Source of the DNA: Tsukamurella conjunctivitidis
GTDB taxonomy: Bacteria; Actinomycetota; Actinomycetes; Mycobacteriales; Mycobacteriaceae
Length of the DNA stretch: 64,000 nt
Reading direction: 5' to 3'
Assembly: GCF_007858475.1 (NCBI RefSeq)
Contig: NZ_VIGX01000001.1
Span: forward strand, 248,001-312,000
Of the stretch, positions 50,929-57,763 are shown piece by piece. Every line of letters starts with the position of its first letter. Position 1 is the first letter of the stretch. The position numbers were made by a program, and so were the translations under genes. The notes under the pieces are model-generated. The model had not been told where the DNA came from. It did no database searches and saw nothing but the letters and a program-made list of their open reading frames with translations.

Positions 50929-50942
50929 AGACGCATGCGTCT
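50929..50942. promoter_or_regulatory. Perfect 14-bp palindrome upstream of the metal cluster
   Basis: AGACGCATGCGTCT is exactly self-complementary and lies 2 bases before the Zur/Fur-like box, abutting the presumed -35. It may be a second operator or an activator site. Confidence 0.45.
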
Positions 50943-50970
50943 TTGTTAACGAAAATGATTGTCGTTAACT
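50943..50970 (+). promoter_or_regulatory. Promoter of the metal-uptake cluster, leaderless
   Basis: TTGTTA (50943-50948) and TTAACT (50965-50970) are 16 bp apart. The GTG of the first gene starts seven bases after the -10 with no ribosome site. The operator palindrome covers the whole spacer and both hexamers, so bound repressor would exclude RNA polymerase. Confidence 0.6.
50945..50969. promoter_or_regulatory. Zur/Fur-type operator
   Basis: A 25-bp inverted repeat: arms GTTAACGA and TCGTTAAC are exact, around an AAATGATTG-type centre. The inner 15-mer (50950-50964) matches the Zur-box form TGAAAATGATTTTCA at 12 of 15 positions. The centre, A/T-rich arms and location between -35 and -10 point to a Fur-family repressor, most likely zinc-sensing Zur, less likely iron Fur. 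Confidence 0.7.
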
Positions 50971-50977
50971 TTGTCGC

Positions 50978-52045
50978 GTGCCCTCCTCTCCGCCCGGCCG
51001 CCGCGTCGGCGCCTCCCCGCTCCTCCTCGCCGGAGTCCTCGCGACGCTGCTCGTCGTGTCGATGGCCGTCGCGGTGTCGCAGGGCGCGGCGACGGTGCCG
51101 CTCGGCGACGTGCGCCGGCTCCTCTGGGCCGCGCTGACCGGCGGAGCCCTCGCCCGCGAGGACGCGTCGACCTATTCCATCCTCTGGGACCTGCGCGTTC
51201 CGCGCGTGCTCCTCGCCGCCCTGGTCGGCGCCGGCCTCGCGATCGCCGGCGTCGCCTGCCAGGCGCTCGTTCGCAACCCGCTCGCCGACCCGTTCATCCT
51301 GGGCATCTCCAGCGGTGCCTCCGTCGGCGCCAGCTTCGTGGTCACCACCGGGGTCGTCGCGGGCCTCGGGATCGCCGGCACCGCCGGCGCGGCGTTCGCG
51401 ACGGCGGTGCTCGCCTCCCTGCTGGTCTACCTCCTCAGCCGGACCGCCGACGGTGCACTCAGCCCGGTCCGCCTGGTGCTCACGGGCGTCGTGCTCGCCT
51501 TCGCCTTCCAGGGCCTCGCGGGCGCGATCGTCTTCTTCGATCCCGTCGGCGACGCCGCGCGATCGGTGATGTTCTGGCTCTTGGGCGGGCTCGGCGGCGC
51601 GCAATGGTCCGTGCTGCCGCTGGTCGCCGCGACCGTCGCCCTGTGCGCCGCGATCACGGGCCGCCTGGCGGGCGTGCTCGACGTCCTCGCGCAGGGCGAC
51701 GAGGCCGCCGCCGCACTCGGTCTCGACCCGCACCGCGCCCGCCGGATGCTCTTCCTCGTCATCGTCGTCATCACCTCCGTCCTCGTCGCGATCGCGGGCA
51801 CCGTCGGCTTCGTCGGCCTCGTCGTGCCGCACGCGGTCCGGATGATCGTCGGCCCGGCGCACCGGGCGGTGCTCCTGCTCGCGCCGCTCGTCGGCGCCCT
51901 CCTCCTGGTCTGGGTGGACCTGCTCAGCCGCCTGGTGGTGGCGCCGCGCGAGCTGCCGCTCGGCATCGTCACGGCCCTCGTCGGCGTCCCCGTCTTCATC
52001 GTCCTGCTGCGGCGGCGCGGTGGGCTCTTGGGCGGTGCGGCGTGA
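50978..52045 (+). CDS. FecCD-family metallophore ABC permease
   Basis: A 355-residue permease with about ten helices. Landmarks: LRVPRVLLAALVGAGLAIAG, CQALVRNPLADPFILGISSGAS, LVLTGVVLAFAFQG and GTVGFVGLVVPHAVRM at the ATPase contact. Here one permease gene serves the operon, so it would act as a homodimer, as BtuC does, unlike the two-permease system at 17.8 kb. It is the first gene behind a Zur/Fur-like operator. GTG start; the stop overlaps the ATPase start. Confidence 0.93.
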   Translation: MPSSPPGRRVGASPLLLAGVLATLLVVSMAVAVSQGAATVPLGDVRRLLWAALTGGALAREDASTYSILWDLRVPRVLLAALVGAGLAIAGVACQALVRNPLADPFILGISSGASVGASFVVTTGVVAGLGIAGTAGAAFATAVLASLLVYLLSRTADGALSPVRLVLTGVVLAFAFQGLAGAIVFFDPVGDAARSVMFWLLGGLGGAQWSVLPLVAATVALCAAITGRLAGVLDVLAQGDEAAAALGLDPHRARRMLFLVIVVITSVLVAIAGTVGFVGLVVPHAVRMIVGPAHRAVLLLAPLVGALLLVWVDLLSRLVVAPRELPLGIVTALVGVPVFIVLLRRRGGLLGGAA

Positions 52046-52791
52046 GGGTGGAACTGGACCGGATCACCGTCGACCTCGGCGGCACCCGTGTGCTGCACGA
52101 GGTCTCGCTCGACATCGCCGCGGGCGCACACGTCGGGCTGATCGGCCCCAACGGCAGCGGCAAGTCGACGCTGCTGCGCTGCCTCTACCGCGCCGTGACC
52201 CCGACCGCAGGATCAGTGCGCGTCGGGGGTGAGGAACTCGGCGCGCTGCGGCGCCGCGAGGGTGCGCGCCGCGTCTCCGCGGTCACCCAGAGCGAGACCG
52301 GGCACCTGGGCTTCACCGCAGGCGAGACCGTCATGCTGGGCCGGTTCGCGCACGGCGACGCCGGCAGCGCCGCTGCGGCGCGCGCCTGCGATGCGGCCCT
52401 CGCCGCGGTCGGGGCCACCCACCTGCGGCACCGCAGCGTGCTCGGGCTCTCCGGCGGTGAGCGCCAGCGCGTCCTCATCGCCCGCGCGCTCGCGCAGGAC
52501 ACGCCCGTTCTGCTGCTCGACGAGCCGCTCAACCACCTCGACGTGCGGCACCAGCTGGACCTGCTGCGCCTGCTGCGGGCCACGTCCAAGACGACCGTCA
52601 CCGCCATCCACGACATCGACCTCGCCGCGCAGAGCTGCGACCGCTTGGTGCTCCTCGACCGCGGACGGGTGGTCGCCGCCGGCACCCCGGCCGCGGTGCT
52701 CACCCCGGAACGCATCGCGGAGGTCTACGGTGTGCGGCCCGTCGTGTCCGCGGCGCGCTCCGGCCCGCCGCGCATCCGCTTCGAACTGTAG
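52042..52791 (+). CDS. Metallophore ABC transporter ATP-binding protein
   Basis: A 249-residue ATPase for the preceding permease. Walker A GPNGSGKST is near residues 33-41, the signature LSGGERQRVLIA, Walker B LLLLDEPLNHLDVRHQLD and the switch IHDIDLA. The NHLDVRHQ form belongs to the FepC/HmuV/BtuD branch. GTG start overlapping the permease stop (GTGA). Confidence 0.93.
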   Translation: MRVELDRITVDLGGTRVLHEVSLDIAAGAHVGLIGPNGSGKSTLLRCLYRAVTPTAGSVRVGGEELGALRRREGARRVSAVTQSETGHLGFTAGETVMLGRFAHGDAGSAAAARACDAALAAVGATHLRHRSVLGLSGGERQRVLIARALAQDTPVLLLDEPLNHLDVRHQLDLLRLLRATSKTTVTAIHDIDLAAQSCDRLVLLDRGRVVAAGTPAAVLTPERIAEVYGVRPVVSAARSGPPRIRFEL

Positions 52792-52817
52792 AACCGACCG
52801 ATCGAAAGGATCGACCG

Positions 52818-53819
52818 ATGCATCCCCGCTCCCTGCTCGCCGCGGCCGTCGCGGCGGGCACCCTGCTCGCCGGCACCGCCTGCGGCGCGCGCCCCGCCGA
52901 ACCCACGGCAGACCTCGTCGACGTCACCAACTGCGGTGTGCACCAGCAGTACCGGTCACCCACCGCCGCGGTGCCCTACGACGTCTCGGCGATCGAGAAG
53001 ATGTTCGCGCTCGGGCTCACCGACCGCATCAAGGGCATCGTGCTGCCGAAGACGGTGCACGGGGTGATCGCGAAGTCCCCCTACCGCGCCGAGTACGCCA
53101 AGGTCCCGATCCTCAGTGACGGTGTGCTCACGCAGGAACCGCTCGTCGCCGCCAAGGCGGACTGGGTCTTCGCGGGGTGGCAGGCCGGCTTCAGTCCCGC
53201 CCGCGGGGTGACACCGGAGTCGTTGGGGAAGTTGCGGATCGACAGCTACATGCAGGAGGAGACCTGTTACAACTACGGCGACAAGCCGGCCGCGCGGGCG
53301 ACGAACCCGATGGAGGACACCTACACCGACATCACCAACCTCGGTGCGATCTTCCGCGTCCAGGACCGAGCGGCGAAGCTGGTCGACGATCTGCGGGCCC
53401 GCGAGCGGGCGCTGCGGGAGCGGGCCGACCGCAAAACCGTCAAGCCGTCGGTGTTCGTCTACGACTCGGGGACGGCGGAGCCGTACACCGCGGGCCGCCG
53501 GGCCGCCGCCGACCAGGTGGTCTCGCTGGCGGGCGGTCGCTCGGTGACCCACGACGTGGACGGCCGGTGGGCCTCGGTCGGCTGGGAGTCCGTGGTGCAG
53601 TCCCAGCCGGACGTGATCGTGATCGTGGACTACGACAAGCAGCCCGCGCAGCAGAAGATCGACTATCTGCGACAGTCGTCACCGATCAAGGACTCTCCGG
53701 CGGTGCGCGAGAGCCGTATCCGTGTGGTGGACTACGCCGAGCTGGTGGCCGGGCCGCGCAACCTCGACGCCGCGGCGTCGCTCGCGGACTACCTGGAGCA
53801 GAGCGGGGCGGCCCGATGA
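52818..53819 (+). CDS. Metallophore ABC transporter binding lipoprotein
   Basis: A 333-residue FecB-type binding lipoprotein. The signal peptide ends LLAGTAC (Cys22). The lobes include GLTDRIKGIVLPKT, KADWVFAGWQAGF and QPDVIVIVDYD. Compared with common FecB proteins it carries an insertion EETCYNYGDKPAARATNP near the domain hinge and several Tyr and Cys residues that could shape an unusual ligand pocket. AAGGA precedes the ATG, 26 bases after the ATPase stop. It would capture the metal-loaded small molecule outside the cell. Confidence 0.92.
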   Translation: MHPRSLLAAAVAAGTLLAGTACGARPAEPTADLVDVTNCGVHQQYRSPTAAVPYDVSAIEKMFALGLTDRIKGIVLPKTVHGVIAKSPYRAEYAKVPILSDGVLTQEPLVAAKADWVFAGWQAGFSPARGVTPESLGKLRIDSYMQEETCYNYGDKPAARATNPMEDTYTDITNLGAIFRVQDRAAKLVDDLRARERALRERADRKTVKPSVFVYDSGTAEPYTAGRRAAADQVVSLAGGRSVTHDVDGRWASVGWESVVQSQPDVIVIVDYDKQPAQQKIDYLRQSSPIKDSPAVRESRIRVVDYAELVAGPRNLDAAASLADYLEQSGAAR

Positions 53820-54622
53820 GCGCGCCCGGCTCCGCCCCCGGATCCGTCGCCGACGTCCTGGACCTCGCCCGCGAGGTCGCGGAGGACGAGGTGGCCCGCA
53901 GCGTCTTCTTCGTCGCGCACGGCACGCGCCTCGCGGGCAGCGACCAGCGCTACCGCAACCGATACGTACTCGTCCGGGTCGGTGACTCCTTCGGCGCGTG
54001 CGCCTTCGAGGAGGGGGAACTCGCACCCGAGGTCGCCGACCTCTCGGGCGAGCCCCTCGCCGCGTTGCTCGAGCACCCCGCGCAGCCGCTGCGGATCGCG
54101 GCCGCCGACGCCGCGCTCGGTGCCGCGGCGCCGCATCGCGACGACCCGCGCGCCGAGCTCCGGACGCTGCCCACCGGCACTCCGGATGTCCGCGCGATCG
54201 CCCGCGACGCGGCGGTCGCCGAACTGCTCACCGTCGCGCCGGGCGCGCGGGTCGCTCTGATCGGCGTGGTGAACCCCCTGGTGGCCGCCATTCGCGAGCG
54301 CGGTGGCGAGCCGCTGCTCGCGGACCGGAACCTGCAGCGCACCCACTGGGGCGACCCGGTGGCGGACGATCACCGCGCGGTGCTCGCCGCGGCGGACGCG
54401 GTGCTCGCGACCGGGATGACCCTGGGCAACGGCAGTTTCGACGAGATCCTCGCATCGTGCCGGGAGCGCGACGTGCCGTTGGCGGTGTACGCGCAGAGCG
54501 GCTCCGCGGTCGCGCGTGCCTTCCTCGGCGCGGGACTGACCGCCCTCTCGGCGGAGCATTTCCCGTTCTCGCAGTTCTCGGCCGACGCCTCACCGATGTA
54601 CCTGTACCGGGGCCCCGCATGA
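53816..54622 (+). CDS. DUF364 Rossmann-like protein (putative heavy-metal chelation family)
   Basis: A 268-residue cytoplasmic protein. The N-terminal about 110 residues fit the DUF4213-like domain (VFFVAHGTRLAGSDQRYRNRYVLVRVGDSFGACAF), the rest the DUF364 Rossmann-like fold (GARVALIGVVNPLV, LADRNLQRTHWGD, LAAADAVLATGMTLGNGSFDEIL). Characterised structures of this family are annotated only as putative heavy-metal chelators. Placed between an import lipoprotein and an exporter in one operon, it might release or insert the metal, or act on the chelator. ATGA overlap with the lipoprotein gene. Confidence 0.83.
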   Translation: MSAPGSAPGSVADVLDLAREVAEDEVARSVFFVAHGTRLAGSDQRYRNRYVLVRVGDSFGACAFEEGELAPEVADLSGEPLAALLEHPAQPLRIAAADAALGAAAPHRDDPRAELRTLPTGTPDVRAIARDAAVAELLTVAPGARVALIGVVNPLVAAIRERGGEPLLADRNLQRTHWGDPVADDHRAVLAAADAVLATGMTLGNGSFDEILASCRERDVPLAVYAQSGSAVARAFLGAGLTALSAEHFPFSQFSADASPMYLYRGPA

Positions 54623-55824
54623 GTGCGGCCGAGGACCGCCCCCTGCCGGACCGGGTGCTGGTCCGCGCGATCTGGCCCATGCTCGCCGCCGCCGCGCTGG
54701 GCCTCGTGCCGTTCACGGTGATGGCGAACTTCCTCGTCGCGATCGCCGCCGACGCGCACGCGGGCGTCGACTTGATCGGCGGTCTGCGCGGCCTGGGCGG
54801 GGTGGCGGCCCTGCTGGTCGGCGTCGCCGCCGCGCCCCTCCTCGACCGGCTCTCCCGCTCGTCGGTGGCGGCGCTGGCGCTGCTGGTCCTCGCGCTGGGC
54901 TGCGGACTCGCGCTGCAGGGCAGCACGGTCGCCTGGATCGTCTTCTGCCTCCTGATCGGTGCGGGCACCGCGGTGCTCAACCCCGCGGTGTCCGCGATGG
55001 CCGCCGACCGGTTCGACTCCCCGGCGGCGTCCGCACGCGCGGCGACGCTCGTCTCGTCCACGATGACACTGACCGCGGTCCTCGCCGCGCCGGTCCTCGC
55101 GCTGCCCGCCGTGGTGTGGGGCTGGCGCGCGGACATGGCGGCCACCGCGGTGGTGCTGCTCGTGGTCGCGCTCCTGATCGCCCGGCGTCGCGACCCGCGC
55201 GGCGGGGAGACGTCCGTGCGCTACCTCCAGGCGTTCCACACCGTGCGGGCGATCCCGGGCGCCCTGGACACACTGGCCGTGTCGCTGCTGCGCACCCTGG
55301 CGTTCATGGGCTCGCTCGCCTACATCGCCGCGGCCTTCGGCCAGCGTTTCGGCATCGGGACGGGGTGGTTCTCGCTGGTGTGGGCGACCTCCGGGCTCGC
55401 CTTCTTCCTCGGGAACTTCCTGGGCGGCAGGATGATGCAGGACCGCGGAGCGGACCGGCTCCTCGGCACGGTCCTGGCCGCGATCCTCCTCGCCTCCGCC
55501 GCGATGCTCGCGCTCTACACCGCTCCGCACGTCGCGGTCGCGTGGCCGATGGTGGCTCTCGTCTCGGCCTCGCACGCGGTCATCGCCGCCGCGGTGACGA
55601 CGACCCTGGTGCGGGGAGCGGGACCGGTGCGCGGCACCGTGCTCTCCCTCAACGGGGCGGCGCAGAGCGTGGGCGTCTTCGCGGGTGCCTCCCTCGCCGG
55701 CGGCGCTCTCGCGCTCGGCGGGTGGACCGGCGTCGGTCTCGTCCTCGGTGGTGCCACCGCACTCGCGGCCGTCTTCGCCCGGCGCGCCCTGCACGGGGCC
55801 CGCACGGAGGAGCGGATCGGATGA
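54619..55824 (+). CDS. MFS exporter
   Basis: A 401-residue twelve-helix transporter of the DHA1-like drug/siderophore exporter type. LGLVPFTVMANFLVAIAADAHAG begins helix 1, GGLRGLGGVAALLVGVAAAPLLDRLSR is the helix 2-3 loop, and FFLGNFLGGRMMQDRGADRLLG the equivalent loop in the second half. In metallophore operons such proteins usually export the apo-chelator. Starts ATGA-overlapped with the DUF364 gene and ends overlapping the kinase start. Confidence 0.88.
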   Translation: MSAAEDRPLPDRVLVRAIWPMLAAAALGLVPFTVMANFLVAIAADAHAGVDLIGGLRGLGGVAALLVGVAAAPLLDRLSRSSVAALALLVLALGCGLALQGSTVAWIVFCLLIGAGTAVLNPAVSAMAADRFDSPAASARAATLVSSTMTLTAVLAAPVLALPAVVWGWRADMAATAVVLLVVALLIARRRDPRGGETSVRYLQAFHTVRAIPGALDTLAVSLLRTLAFMGSLAYIAAAFGQRFGIGTGWFSLVWATSGLAFFLGNFLGGRMMQDRGADRLLGTVLAAILLASAAMLALYTAPHVAVAWPMVALVSASHAVIAAAVTTTLVRGAGPVRGTVLSLNGAAQSVGVFAGASLAGGALALGGWTGVGLVLGGATALAAVFARRALHGARTEERIG

Positions 55825-56735
55825 GCGCTCCGCGCAACGCCTCCCGCGGCCGCGGTGTGGGCCGGAGCACCGGCCACCACGGGGAGCTGCTGCAGGGCCG
55901 CTTCCGCTGCCCGGTGTTCGACGAGTGTCCGGGGCTGGTGACGGTGCCGATCGGCACCGTCGGGTCCGTGGCGGTCTTCGTCCCCGACACCTCCGGTGTC
56001 GTGCGGGCGGTCGGCACCGCGCGCGACGTCGCCAAGGCGCGCCGCGCCGCCGAGGTCACGCTCGCGCATTTGCGCGTCCGTGGCGTGCTCGGCTGCACCG
56101 GAGGCGAACTCCGCGTGACGCGCACGACGGCCGTGGGCCTGGGGCTGGGCTCGTCGACCGCCGACGTGCTCGCCGCGGTCCGCGCGGTCGCCGACTGCGC
56201 CGGCGCGGAACTCGACGCCGAGACCGTCGCGCGACTCGCCGTCGCCGCCGAGGGCGCCTCGGACCCGCTGTGGGCCGACCGGCCGATCCTGTTCGCGCAC
56301 AGGCACGGCCACGTCATCGAGGAGCTCGGCGCGGTGCTGCCCCCGATGCTGCTGGTGCGGTGCGTGCTCGGCGGTCCCGTCGACACCCTGGCGCTGCGTC
56401 CCACGGGTGCCGGGGACGTGGAGGAGTACGAGGATCTGCGCGCACTGCTGCGGTGTGCGGTCGCCGCCGGGGACGCGGCCGGGGTCGCCGCGGTCGCCAC
56501 GCGCAGCGCGGTGCTCAACCAGAGCCGCCACTACAAACCCGGACTGGGCCGCCTCATCGCGGCGGCCGAACGCGGCGGCGCGCTCGGCGTGCAGGTGGCC
56601 CACTCCGGGAACGTCGCCGGCCTGCTCTTCGCGCGCGAGCACCCCCGCGAACGTGTGCGACGCGCGTGCACCGCGGTGCGCGCAGCCGGTTTCCGCATCG
56701 ACGAGACGCCGATCGCGATCGGCGGTGCCGCATGA
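55821..56735 (+). CDS. GHMP kinase, PduX-like (amino-acid kinase candidate)
   Basis: A 304-residue small-molecule kinase. GRSTGHHGELLQG (14-26) is the PduX-type N-terminal motif and GLGLGSSTADVLA (106-118) the ATP-binding GHMP motif 2; AHSGNVAGLLF is the C-terminal motif. PduX phosphorylates L-threonine. Here the next gene encodes a PLP enzyme of the fold that uses O-phosphorylated or O-acetylated serine/threonine, so this kinase probably makes its substrate (inference). No cobalamin genes are near. Linked by ATGA to both neighbours. Confidence 0.85.
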   Translation: MSAPRNASRGRGVGRSTGHHGELLQGRFRCPVFDECPGLVTVPIGTVGSVAVFVPDTSGVVRAVGTARDVAKARRAAEVTLAHLRVRGVLGCTGGELRVTRTTAVGLGLGSSTADVLAAVRAVADCAGAELDAETVARLAVAAEGASDPLWADRPILFAHRHGHVIEELGAVLPPMLLVRCVLGGPVDTLALRPTGAGDVEEYEDLRALLRCAVAAGDAAGVAAVATRSAVLNQSRHYKPGLGRLIAAAERGGALGVQVAHSGNVAGLLFAREHPRERVRRACTAVRAAGFRIDETPIAIGGAA

Positions 56736-57763
56736 GGATCGACGGGCACATCGCCGAAGCATTGAGCCGGCCCGCGCTCCTGCGCGGTGCCGACGACCGG
56801 TACCTGCTCCGGTTCGAGTCCATGAAGGTCGCCTCGGCCCGGGCCGCGCTCCGAGCCGCCCTCGACGCGGGACGGGTCCGGCCGGGCGGCACCGTCATCG
56901 ACTCCTCGTCGGGCATCTACGCCTACGCGCTGGCGCTGGCCTGCCACGAGGCGGGTGTGCGGTGCCGCATCATCGGATCGACCACGATCGACGAGGGGCT
57001 ACGGCTCCAACTCCTCGCGTTGGGGGTCGACCTCGAGCAGATGCCGCCCTCGGCGTCGCTCAAGCTCGACCAGGACCGTCGCGTCCGCCGCATCACCGAA
57101 CTGCTCGCCCGGGATCCGTCGCTGCACTGGATGCGGCAGTACCACGATCCGGTGCACTACCTCGGCTACCGCGACATCGCGCGCGGCGCCGCGGCCGAGC
57201 TCGCGGCGGAGGGCATCGCATCGGTGCGGCTCGTGGCGCCCGTAGGGTCGGGCGTCTCCAGCGGGGCCCTGAGGCTCGGCTTCGAGGAGGCGGGCATGGC
57301 CGTGGAACTGGTCGGGGTGCAGCCCTTCGGCAGCGTCACGTTCGGCTCCGGGCACGTCGAGGACCCCGCCATGCTGATCGCCGGGATCGGCTCGTCGATC
57401 CCGTTCGACAACGTGCGGCACGGGCTCTACGACGTTATCCACTGGGTGTCCTTCGAGGTCGCCCGCGCGGGCACGCACCGGCTGCTCCGGGAGTACGCGC
57501 TGTTCGCGGGCCTCTCCTCCGGGGCCGGGCACGTCGCCGCGGTCTACGAACAGGACTGCGGCACAGCGGTGGACGCCACCGTGCAGGTGCTGCCGGACAC
57601 GGGGCACCGGTACCTCCGCGCATTGGCCGACCCCGCCGGCGCGACGGAACCGGAGCGGCCGCGGCTCGTCGACGACCCGTCCGGGATCGCGCTGCCGTGG
57701 TCGCGGATGCGCTGGTCGGGCGCGCCGGCGCCCGACGCCGCGGCCCGGACCGGCGACCGCTAG
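56732..57763 (+). CDS. Divergent cysteine-synthase-family PLP enzyme (SbnA-like fold)
   Basis: A 343-residue fold-type II PLP enzyme. Lys32 (FESMKVASARAA) is the expected Schiff-base lysine; the phosphate loop is VGSGVSSGAL (171-180). The substrate loop, normally SSGN with an Asn that contacts PLP, reads SSGIYAYA (59-66), so the chemistry or substrate should differ from cysteine synthase. SbnA, a relative, condenses O-phosphoserine and glutamate for diaminopropionate in a siderophore pathway. As last gene of a metal-controlled operon beside a kinase, it is the best candidate for building the chelator backbone. Its stop overlaps the convergent mnhG stop. Confidence 0.85.
   Translation: MRIDGHIAEALSRPALLRGADDRYLLRFESMKVASARAALRAALDAGRVRPGGTVIDSSSGIYAYALALACHEAGVRCRIIGSTTIDEGLRLQLLALGVDLEQMPPSASLKLDQDRRVRRITELLARDPSLHWMRQYHDPVHYLGYRDIARGAAAELAAEGIASVRLVAPVGSGVSSGALRLGFEEAGMAVELVGVQPFGSVTFGSGHVEDPAMLIAGIGSSIPFDNVRHGLYDVIHWVSFEVARAGTHRLLREYALFAGLSSGAGHVAAVYEQDCGTAVDATVQVLPDTGHRYLRALADPAGATEPERPRLVDDPSGIALPWSRMRWSGAPAPDAAARTGDR

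What the first reader, a model, noticed from the sequence alone, without database searches (positions are those of the whole stretch)
50929..57763. Candidate new metallophore system: Zur/Fur-controlled import, export and biosynthesis in one seven-gene operon
The sequence shows a 25-bp Fur-family-type palindrome between -35 and -10, then permease, ATPase, binding lipoprotein, DUF364 protein, MFS exporter, GHMP kinase and a cysteine-synthase-fold enzyme, six of the seven genes joined by 4-bp overlaps or less than 30 bases. Known metallophore operons (staphyloferrin B, EDDS) pair a PLP enzyme of this fold with exporter and importer, and staphyloferrin B also uses a serine kinase. No NRPS, NIS synthetase, nicotianamine-like synthase or opine dehydrogenase is present, so the product would be a small amino-acid-derived chelator not matching a described pathway I know. 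That the cluster makes a chelator is inference.
Basis: partly seen in the sequence, partly recalled or inferred. Interest (0 to 1): 0.85.

Follow-up and report, generated by a model that had tools for sequence, protein, structure and literature searches.

The report
Zinc-controlled metal-scavenger operon in actinobacteria
Seven bacterial genes under a probable zinc switch look like a complete kit to make, release and re-absorb a small zinc-grabbing molecule, and relatives of the kit occur in many actinobacteria although our searches found no paper that describes it.

Summary
Seven genes (FecCD permease, ATPase, binding lipoprotein, DUF364, MFS, GHMP kinase, SbnA-like PLP enzyme) form one operon with five 4-bp overlaps and one 26-bp gap. 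The palindrome at 50945-50969 scores 21 bits with a matrix built from five sites at other zinc genes of this genome; the next best window site scores 11. The genus is Tsukamurella; a close PLP homologue is in 12 of 16 sampled genomes and all 8 fetched neighbourhoods are colinear.

The cassette is widespread. Of the 80 best-scoring named DUF364 loci (Streptomyces, Nocardiopsis, Kocuria and others), 77 have a PLP enzyme, 76 an MFS and 70 ABC importer genes nearby; 71 hold a Zur-like site of 15 bits or more against 1 of 80 reversed controls. Importers (FecCD or Opp type) and accessory enzymes vary while DUF364 plus PLP stay, so this pair is the probable biosynthetic core.

Most likely it is a Zur-repressed zincophore system of a new biosynthetic class: kinase and PLP enzyme join two amino acids, and no SbnB, SbnH or lyase splits the adduct. 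Product, DUF364's reaction and zinc as cargo are inferred. Six of 39 further loci form a class without a well-placed box.

The parts
50929..50942 (.). Perfect 14-bp palindrome AGACGCATGCGTCT just upstream of the Zur box; possible second operator, unexplained
   Evidence: Only exact copy in the genome, one more place with 1 mismatch; kept with variants in 9 of 9 genus promoters
50945..50969 (.). Zur-type operator GTTAACGAAAATGATTGTCGTTAAC, overlapping the presumed -35/-10 region
   Evidence: 21.0 bits with a matrix from five other sites; genus footprint; genome-wide sites
50978..52045 (+). FecCD-type ABC permease, GTG start, possibly leaderless
   Evidence: Pfam FecCD 2e-82; GTG conserved 9 of 9
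52042..52791 (+). ABC transporter ATPase (GTG 52042 or 52048)
   Evidence: Pfam ABC_tran 4.7e-32
52818..53819 (+). Substrate-binding lipoprotein, Peripla_BP_2
   Evidence: Pfam 3e-16; NCBIfam best TIGR03868, below cut-off
53816..54622 (+). DUF364 protein: enolase-N-like plus Rossmann-like domains; proposed core enzyme of the chelator pathway
   Evidence: Pfam DUF364 5.6e-12; model pLDDT 93.8; Foldseek best 3npg and 3l5o
54619..55824 (+). MFS transporter, presumed exporter of the free chelator
   Evidence: Pfam MFS_1 2.7e-25
55821..56735 (+). GHMP-family small-molecule kinase, PduX-like by recalled motif, presumed L-Ser or L-Thr kinase
   Evidence: Pfam GHMP_kinases_N/C; relatives beside PLP synthase genes elsewhere
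56732..57763 (+). SbnA-like fold-type II PLP enzyme
   Evidence: Pfam PALP 7.4e-26; NCBIfam best SbnA 105 bits, below its cut-off; family profile best in PDB is SbnA 6e-54, though the single sequence hits cysteine synthases first; SbnA R132 and Y152 counterparts invariant 126 of 126

Best explanation
A Zur-repressed zincophore operon. When zinc falls, Zur leaves the box at 50945-50969 and the seven genes are read as one message. The GHMP kinase phosphorylates L-serine or L-threonine. The SbnA-like PLP enzyme eliminates the phosphate and adds the amino group of a second amino acid, giving an N-linked diamino-polycarboxylate. Unlike in staphyloferrin B, EDDS-type or diaminobutyrate pathways, no OCD (SbnB), decarboxylase (SbnH) or lyase splits or reshapes this adduct; DUF364 processes or condenses it into the final chelator. 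The MFS protein exports it, and the lipoprotein-FecCD-ATPase importer brings the zinc complex back. Shown by computation: gene content, operon structure, Zur-type box, conserved neighbourhood, constancy of DUF364 plus PLP. Inferred: substrates, DUF364's reaction, direction of transport, zinc as cargo.
For: Zur box. With the matrix made from five non-cluster sites, 71 of 80 named loci and 28 of 39 further loci hold a site of at least 15 bits against 1 of 80 and 0 of 39 reversed-sequence controls, and the top site lies beside a cluster gene in 66 of 80 and 31 of 39. Co-occurrence within 8.5 kb: 77/80 PALP, 76/80 MFS, 70/80 ABC, 53/80 co-directional kinase; 38 of 40 fetched unnamed loci have PALP. 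DUF364 and PALP distances correlate at r = 0.967, n = 126. SbnA R132 and Y152 counterparts invariant 126/126. Kinase-PLP-lyase cassettes on plasmids fit a Ser/Thr-phosphate route; within 7 kb of DUF364, SbnB 0, SbnH 1 and lyase domain 0 of 130 loci. DUF364 fold and the published active-site proposal (PMC2954201, parts 1-2 of 4).
Against: No metabolite, expression or binding data. The class DUF364-PALP-MFS with or without Opp (6 of 39 loci) fails the box-placement test, and so does L110, which has the exact window gene order. Of six other box neighbourhoods fetched, two (L051, L052) show no zinc gene, and 12 of the 20 pattern places were not examined. 27 of 80 named loci lack a co-directional kinase hit. 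4 of 16 genus genomes lack a close PLP homologue. A close PALP relative occurs without DUF364 in an NRPS region (L042). The Tyr at the SbnA Y152 position is also in the cystathionine beta-synthase Rv1077, so only the Arg separates the two. The FUR-family gene called Zur fits Fur models best, all below cut-off; its naming rests on context. The correlation had no background-gene control.
Confidence: 0.8

Rival explanations
1. Zinc-sparing metabolism: the kinase and PLP enzyme are zinc-independent substitutes in cysteine/threonine metabolism, co-regulated with an unrelated metal importer.
For: Zur-type sites of this genome also lie at alternative ribosomal protein genes; PALP has the cysteine-synthase fold and the single sequence hits cysteine synthases first.
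Against: MFS in 76 of 80 and PALP in 77 of 80 DUF364 loci; importer type swaps while the core stays; the SbnA R132 counterpart is invariant 126/126, and the cysteine synthases aligned have Phe at the Y152 position; LAL-type ATP-grasp, MR/MLE, methyltransferase or PhyH genes in sister clusters.
Confidence: 0.07
2. Corrinoid-type uptake and salvage: BtuCDF-like importer with a PduX-like threonine kinase that feeds aminopropanol phosphate to cobamide assembly.
For: BtuC and corrinoid ATPase models among the NCBIfam hits, below cut-off; PduX makes threonine phosphate for B12 (recalled); DUF364's C-terminal domain resembles precorrin methyltransferases (PMC2954201).
Against: No cobamide-specific family among the seven proteins; an MFS is present; 8 of 80 named loci have an Opp-type importer instead; all kinase loci and those hold a PLP synthase gene nearby, against one viewed locus without it (Rhizobium johnstonii).
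Confidence: 0.04
3. Real metallophore operon, but for another metal or mixed metals (Fe, Ni, Co, Cu), with Zur control secondary.
For: The DUF364-PALP-MFS(-Opp) class lacks a well-placed Zur box; Opp-type importers in the ATP-grasp class; a second, different palindrome in the promoter.
Against: 71 of 80 named loci have a Zur-like site against 1 of 80 controls; the matrix comes only from sites at zinc-type genes.
Confidence: 0.07

Closest known systems
[S,S]-EDDS and EDHA aminopolycarboxylate clusters (Amycolatopsis japonicum and others)
   Same: EDDS genes are Zur-controlled in A. japonicum (PMC9252823 and PMC6103462, passages); SbnA-like PLP enzyme and exporter, amino-acid-derived chelator without NRPS (gene content recalled)
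   Different: EDDS-type sets combine SbnA, SbnB (OCD) and SbnH-like decarboxylase with MATE (seen as an architecture in L046; that this is the aes gene content is recalled); here DUF364 and a kinase stand in place of SbnB and SbnH, and MFS in place of MATE
Staphyloferrin B (SbnA/SbnB, SbnI)
   Same: SbnA is the best PDB match of the PLP family profile; an amino-acid kinase supplies the phosphate in both (SbnI recalled)
   Different: No SbnB and no NIS synthetase family in the operon; kinase is of the GHMP family; Zur-type instead of Fur control (recalled for sbn)
Kinase-PLP-lyase diaminobutyrate cassettes (friulimicin DabABC-like, recalled)
   Same: Same kinase family, 44-50% identity to the L043 or window kinase in the five viewed loci, beside a PLP synthase
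   Different: Lyase absent here (0 of 130 loci); DUF364, exporter and importer added
Opine zincophores (staphylopine, pseudopaline)
   Same: Biosynthesis, export and import in one zinc-controlled locus; ATP-grasp-class relatives use an Opp/Nik-type importer, as staphylopine does (recalled)
   Different: No nicotianamine-like synthase or opine dehydrogenase family among the seven proteins

Membership tests
Zur regulon | Zur-type operator in the promoter, matching sites of zinc genes in the same genome | tested here: met
Zur regulon | Zinc-dependent binding and derepression | not testable with these tools
   needs EMSA and RNA
Metallophore system | Exporter, importer and biosynthetic enzymes co-encoded and conserved | tested here: met
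Metallophore system | Secreted metal-binding product | not testable with these tools
   no metabolomics
EDDS-type aminopolycarboxylate cluster | SbnA-like PLP enzyme | tested here: met
EDDS-type aminopolycarboxylate cluster | OCD (SbnB-like) and decarboxylase (SbnH-like); feature set recalled | tested here: not met
   SbnB 0 of 130 and SbnH 1 of 130 DUF364 loci; neither family among the seven window proteins
SbnA (TIGR03945 equivalog) | Score over the curated cut-off | tested here: not met
   105.3 against 349.95 bits
SbnA-like OPS-dependent chemistry | SbnA R132 and Y152 counterparts (functional roles recalled) | tested here: met
   R117 and Y137 in 126 of 126; the Tyr alone is not specific, Rv1077 has it too
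DabABC diaminobutyrate cassette | argininosuccinate-lyase-like DabB (recalled) | tested here: not met
   lyase domain 0 of 130
NRPS / NIS / opine metallophores | NRPS, IucA/IucC, nicotianamine-like synthase or opine dehydrogenase in the operon | tested here: not met
   Pfam of all seven proteins
DUF364 (PF04016) | Pfam match over cut-off and two-domain fold | tested here: met
   45.9 against 23 bits; Foldseek 3npg E 7.9e-10, 3l5o 1.3e-8, TM 0.58-0.66, rmsd about 6 A
PduX L-threonine kinase | Specific PduX family model or measured L-Thr kinase activity | tested here: inconclusive
   only generic GHMP and other GHMP-kinase matches

The most novel reading that the evidence does not exclude
DUF364 plus an SbnA-like PLP enzyme is the defining core of a separate, widespread class of zincophore biosynthesis in actinobacteria, in which DUF364 is a C-N-bond-forming or condensing enzyme of metallophore assembly, giving a first function to this long-unassigned family, and in which importer, kinase, ATP-grasp ligase, racemase-like enzyme, methyltransferase and PhyH hydroxylase are swapped to make different chelators.
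Probability: 0.55. Interest if true: 0.82.

Novelty: new variant of a known kind. Interest (0 to 1): 0.72.

Why it matters
Few zincophores have a known pathway (general knowledge). A compact pathway without NRPS, NIS synthetase or opine dehydrogenase, found next to Zur-type boxes in many actinobacteria including streptomycetes, would add a chelator family. Genome-mining rules may miss it; antiSMASH 7 has an aminopolycarboxylic-acid rule, whose content I did not see. It would also make the 2010 proposal that DUF364 works in metal-chelator synthesis directly testable. In a public Tsukamurella tyrosinosolvens record these genes are labelled only as iron ABC permease, ABC ATPase, ABC substrate-binding protein, DUF364, MFS, hypothetical and PLP enzyme.

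Tried and rejected
Iron (IdeR/Fur) control: not favoured, because the box matches sites at zinc-type genes of the same genome. Cysteine synthase: not favoured, on the SbnA-type Arg and on context. EDDS membership: rejected on missing SbnB and SbnH. The 16 'lyase' hits were traced to the ATP-grasp half of a fused query (query residues 1-425) and dropped. L095 is a distant DUF364 without PALP and was left out of the box count (39 of the 40 fetched loci counted); L129 lacks a PALP hit. L042, L045 and L046 have no DUF364 and were left out of co-occurrence counts. In one search, 130 loci had a DUF364 hit and 125 passed length and distance limits (126 with the window). My gene finder missed or miscalled some genes, so tblastn counts are used. 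The five matrix sites were chosen because they lie at zinc-type genes. The strict promoter scan gave nothing. Paper searches added no precedent for the kinase.
Full report
WHAT IS THERE. The seven frames are real and compact: permease 50978-52045, ATPase 52042-52791, binding lipoprotein 52818-53819, DUF364 53816-54622, MFS 54619-55824, GHMP kinase 55821-56735, PLP enzyme 56732-57763, with five 4-bp overlaps and one 26-bp gap. Each passes its Pfam cut-off. No NCBIfam hit shown is above its cut-off (for the ATPase 25 of 189 hits were shown): the transporter is nearest to the putative 'F420-0' ABC models (TIGR03868, 03869, 03873), the PLP enzyme to SbnA (105 bits against a cut-off of 350), and DUF364 matches nothing.

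REGULATION. The box GTTAACGAAAATGATTGTCGTTAAC overlaps what I read by eye as TTGTTA-17-TAACTT before a GTG that may be leaderless; a strict promoter scan found nothing. A Zur-type pattern with at most 2 mismatches finds 20 places in the genome against 0 for the reversed pattern. I fetched six other neighbourhoods holding seven of these places. Four are zinc-type: L28/L33/S14/S18 ribosomal genes facing an MRF GTPase with type-B L31 (two sites); a ZnuA-type gene (5.7e-49) before an ABC ATPase and permease; an AztD-like gene (391.5 bits, just below the cut-off of 400); and an ArsR-like frame directly before a FUR-family gene, as in smtB-zur (recalled). Two (L051, L052) show no zinc gene, and the remaining 12 places were not examined. 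The genome has two FUR-family genes; the one in the ArsR-FUR pair fits Fur models best, all below cut-off. A matrix made from the five sites at zinc-type genes, without the operon, gives the operon's box 21.0 bits; the next best place in the 64-kb window gives 11.3.

GENUS. Contigs of same-genus genomes match named Tsukamurella contigs by length. A close PLP homologue is in 12 of 16 sampled genus genomes. The eight fetched neighbourhoods (L034-L041) have all seven genes colinear, between flanking genes of matching length and orientation (L040 has one extra upstream frame). In the promoter alignment of nine, box, GTG and a second palindrome AGACGCATGCGTCT are kept with variants. The second palindrome occurs exactly once in the genome.

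WIDER FAMILY. A DUF364 alignment search found matches in 7 of 396 phylum genomes and 54 of 397 order genomes, the window's own genome included in both. Of 40 fetched loci 38 have PALP nearby. Leaving out the distant L095, I sort 39 by hand: 15 with GHMP kinase and FecCD importer; 3 with FecCD and no kinase hit; 13 with ATP-grasp, mostly with MR/MLE enzyme, methyltransferase and Opp-type importer; 6 with DUF364-PALP-MFS with or without Opp; 2 with methyltransferase-PALP-DUF364. Pfam of examples: ATP-grasp with LAL_C2 (L-amino-acid ligase), MR_MLE, Methyltransf_25, PhyH, SBP_bac_5; the roughly 240-aa gene before DUF364 matches MTS just below cut-off in L096 and just above it in L214. In those 80, within 8.5 kb of DUF364: PALP 77, MFS 76, any FecCD, Fec-type ATPase or Opp permease hit 70, co-directional kinase 53, MTS-type methyltransferase 46, Opp permease 8; exact window order 10, of which 6 are Tsukamurella, 2 Kocuria, 1 Rothia and 1 Curtobacterium. 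The loci without PALP are L137, L188 and L206, the last two cut short by contig ends. L110, from another family of the same order, also has the exact order.

ZUR SITES ACROSS THE FAMILY. With the same matrix, 71 of 80 named loci hold a site of at least 15 bits against 1 of 80 in the reversed sequences, and 28 of 39 against 0 of 39 in the other set; the best site of the locus lies beside a cluster gene in 66 of 80 and 31 of 39. Against this reading: all 6 loci of the DUF364-PALP-MFS(-Opp) class fail the placement test, and so do L110 and L128.

CORE. Distances of DUF364 and PALP correlate at r = 0.967 over 126 proteins, and kinase against DUF364 at 0.845 over 79 (no background gene was run as a control, and shared ancestry alone gives high values). 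The PLP lysine K32, S58, S60, G61 and the counterparts of SbnA R132 and Y152 are invariant in 126 of 126 (position matching; functional roles recalled). The Tyr is not specific: cystathionine beta-synthase Rv1077 has it too, while the aligned cysteine synthases have Phe. The family profile finds SbnA first in the PDB (6e-54), the single window sequence finds cysteine synthases first and SbnA seventh, and all 31 scanned family members match SbnA, cysteine-synthase and CBS models alike. DUF364 models at mean pLDDT 93.8 and is most like the two solved DUF364 proteins 3npg and 3l5o, at TM 0.58-0.66 and rmsd about 6 A. [quoted passage not shown] By motif I equate that residue with invariant D170, which is inference.

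CHEMISTRY. The kinase, at 44-50% identity to the L043 or window kinase, sits beside a PLP synthase gene in five viewed plasmid loci (Mesorhizobium japonicum, M. loti, Sinorhizobium meliloti, Azospirillum ramasamyi, Streptomyces globosus), four of them with a lyase gene (all but M. loti) and three with an ATP-grasp domain. A sixth viewed hit (Rhizobium johnstonii) has no PLP neighbour, and a seventh and eighth (L213 Tsukamurella, L214 Streptomyces) are the metallophore-type cluster itself. The lyase cassettes resemble kinase-PLP-lyase diaminobutyrate pathways (recalled). Within 7 kb of DUF364 in 130 loci, SbnB is found in 0, SbnH in 1 (L200) and the lyase domain in 0. I therefore propose that the PLP adduct is kept and becomes the chelator backbone, with DUF364 finishing it. 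This step is inference.

LITERATURE. 'DUF364' occurs in 7 papers of the library (listing); passages of PMC4046660 concern Serratia prodigiosin. Searches for metallophore, Zur, zincophore, aminopolycarboxylic acid, GHMP kinase, PduX, SbnA and EDDS (listings capped at 20 papers each, with passages read) showed no description of this cluster. The library lacks most subscription papers, including both Spohn papers on EDDS and EDHA, which I saw only as reference entries.

VERDICT. The product is unknown.

Noticed in passing
window 50929-50942: Perfect palindrome AGACGCATGCGTCT beside the Zur box, the only exact copy in the genome and kept with variants in the genus; a second regulator may act here.
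   Followed up: partly
L104, L106, L107, L114, L115, L119: DUF364-PALP-MFS(-Opp) clusters without a well-placed Zur-like box; may be controlled by another metal sensor.
   Followed up: no
L213 (NZ_LR134468.1 43830-44747): The operon sits on a record called plasmid 26 of T. tyrosinosolvens with neighbours like those in the window (peptide deformylase, superoxide dismutase, Na+/H+ antiporter genes); the record is probably a chromosomal piece.
   Followed up: partly
   Followed up: partly
L210, L211, L215, L216: Kinase plus cysteine-synthase-like gene cassettes on rhizobial and Azospirillum plasmids, annotated hypothetical protein or kinase, with a lyase gene in three of the four: probable diamino-acid pathways.
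   Followed up: partly
L200: A Streptomyces locus with a PALP-SbnH pair on the opposite strand next to a DUF364-kinase-PALP cluster: two candidate metallophore systems side by side.
   Followed up: no
L111, L142, L147, L153, L158, L166, L167, L186, L189, L192, L199, L203: DUF364 loci with a PhyH-like dioxygenase nearby (12 of 130), all 12 with the methyltransferase-PALP-DUF364-MFS arrangement and no kinase hit; suggests a hydroxylated chelator variant.
   Followed up: partly
L051 6227, L052 6783: Zur-type pattern places in the same genome without an obvious zinc gene beside them.
   Followed up: no
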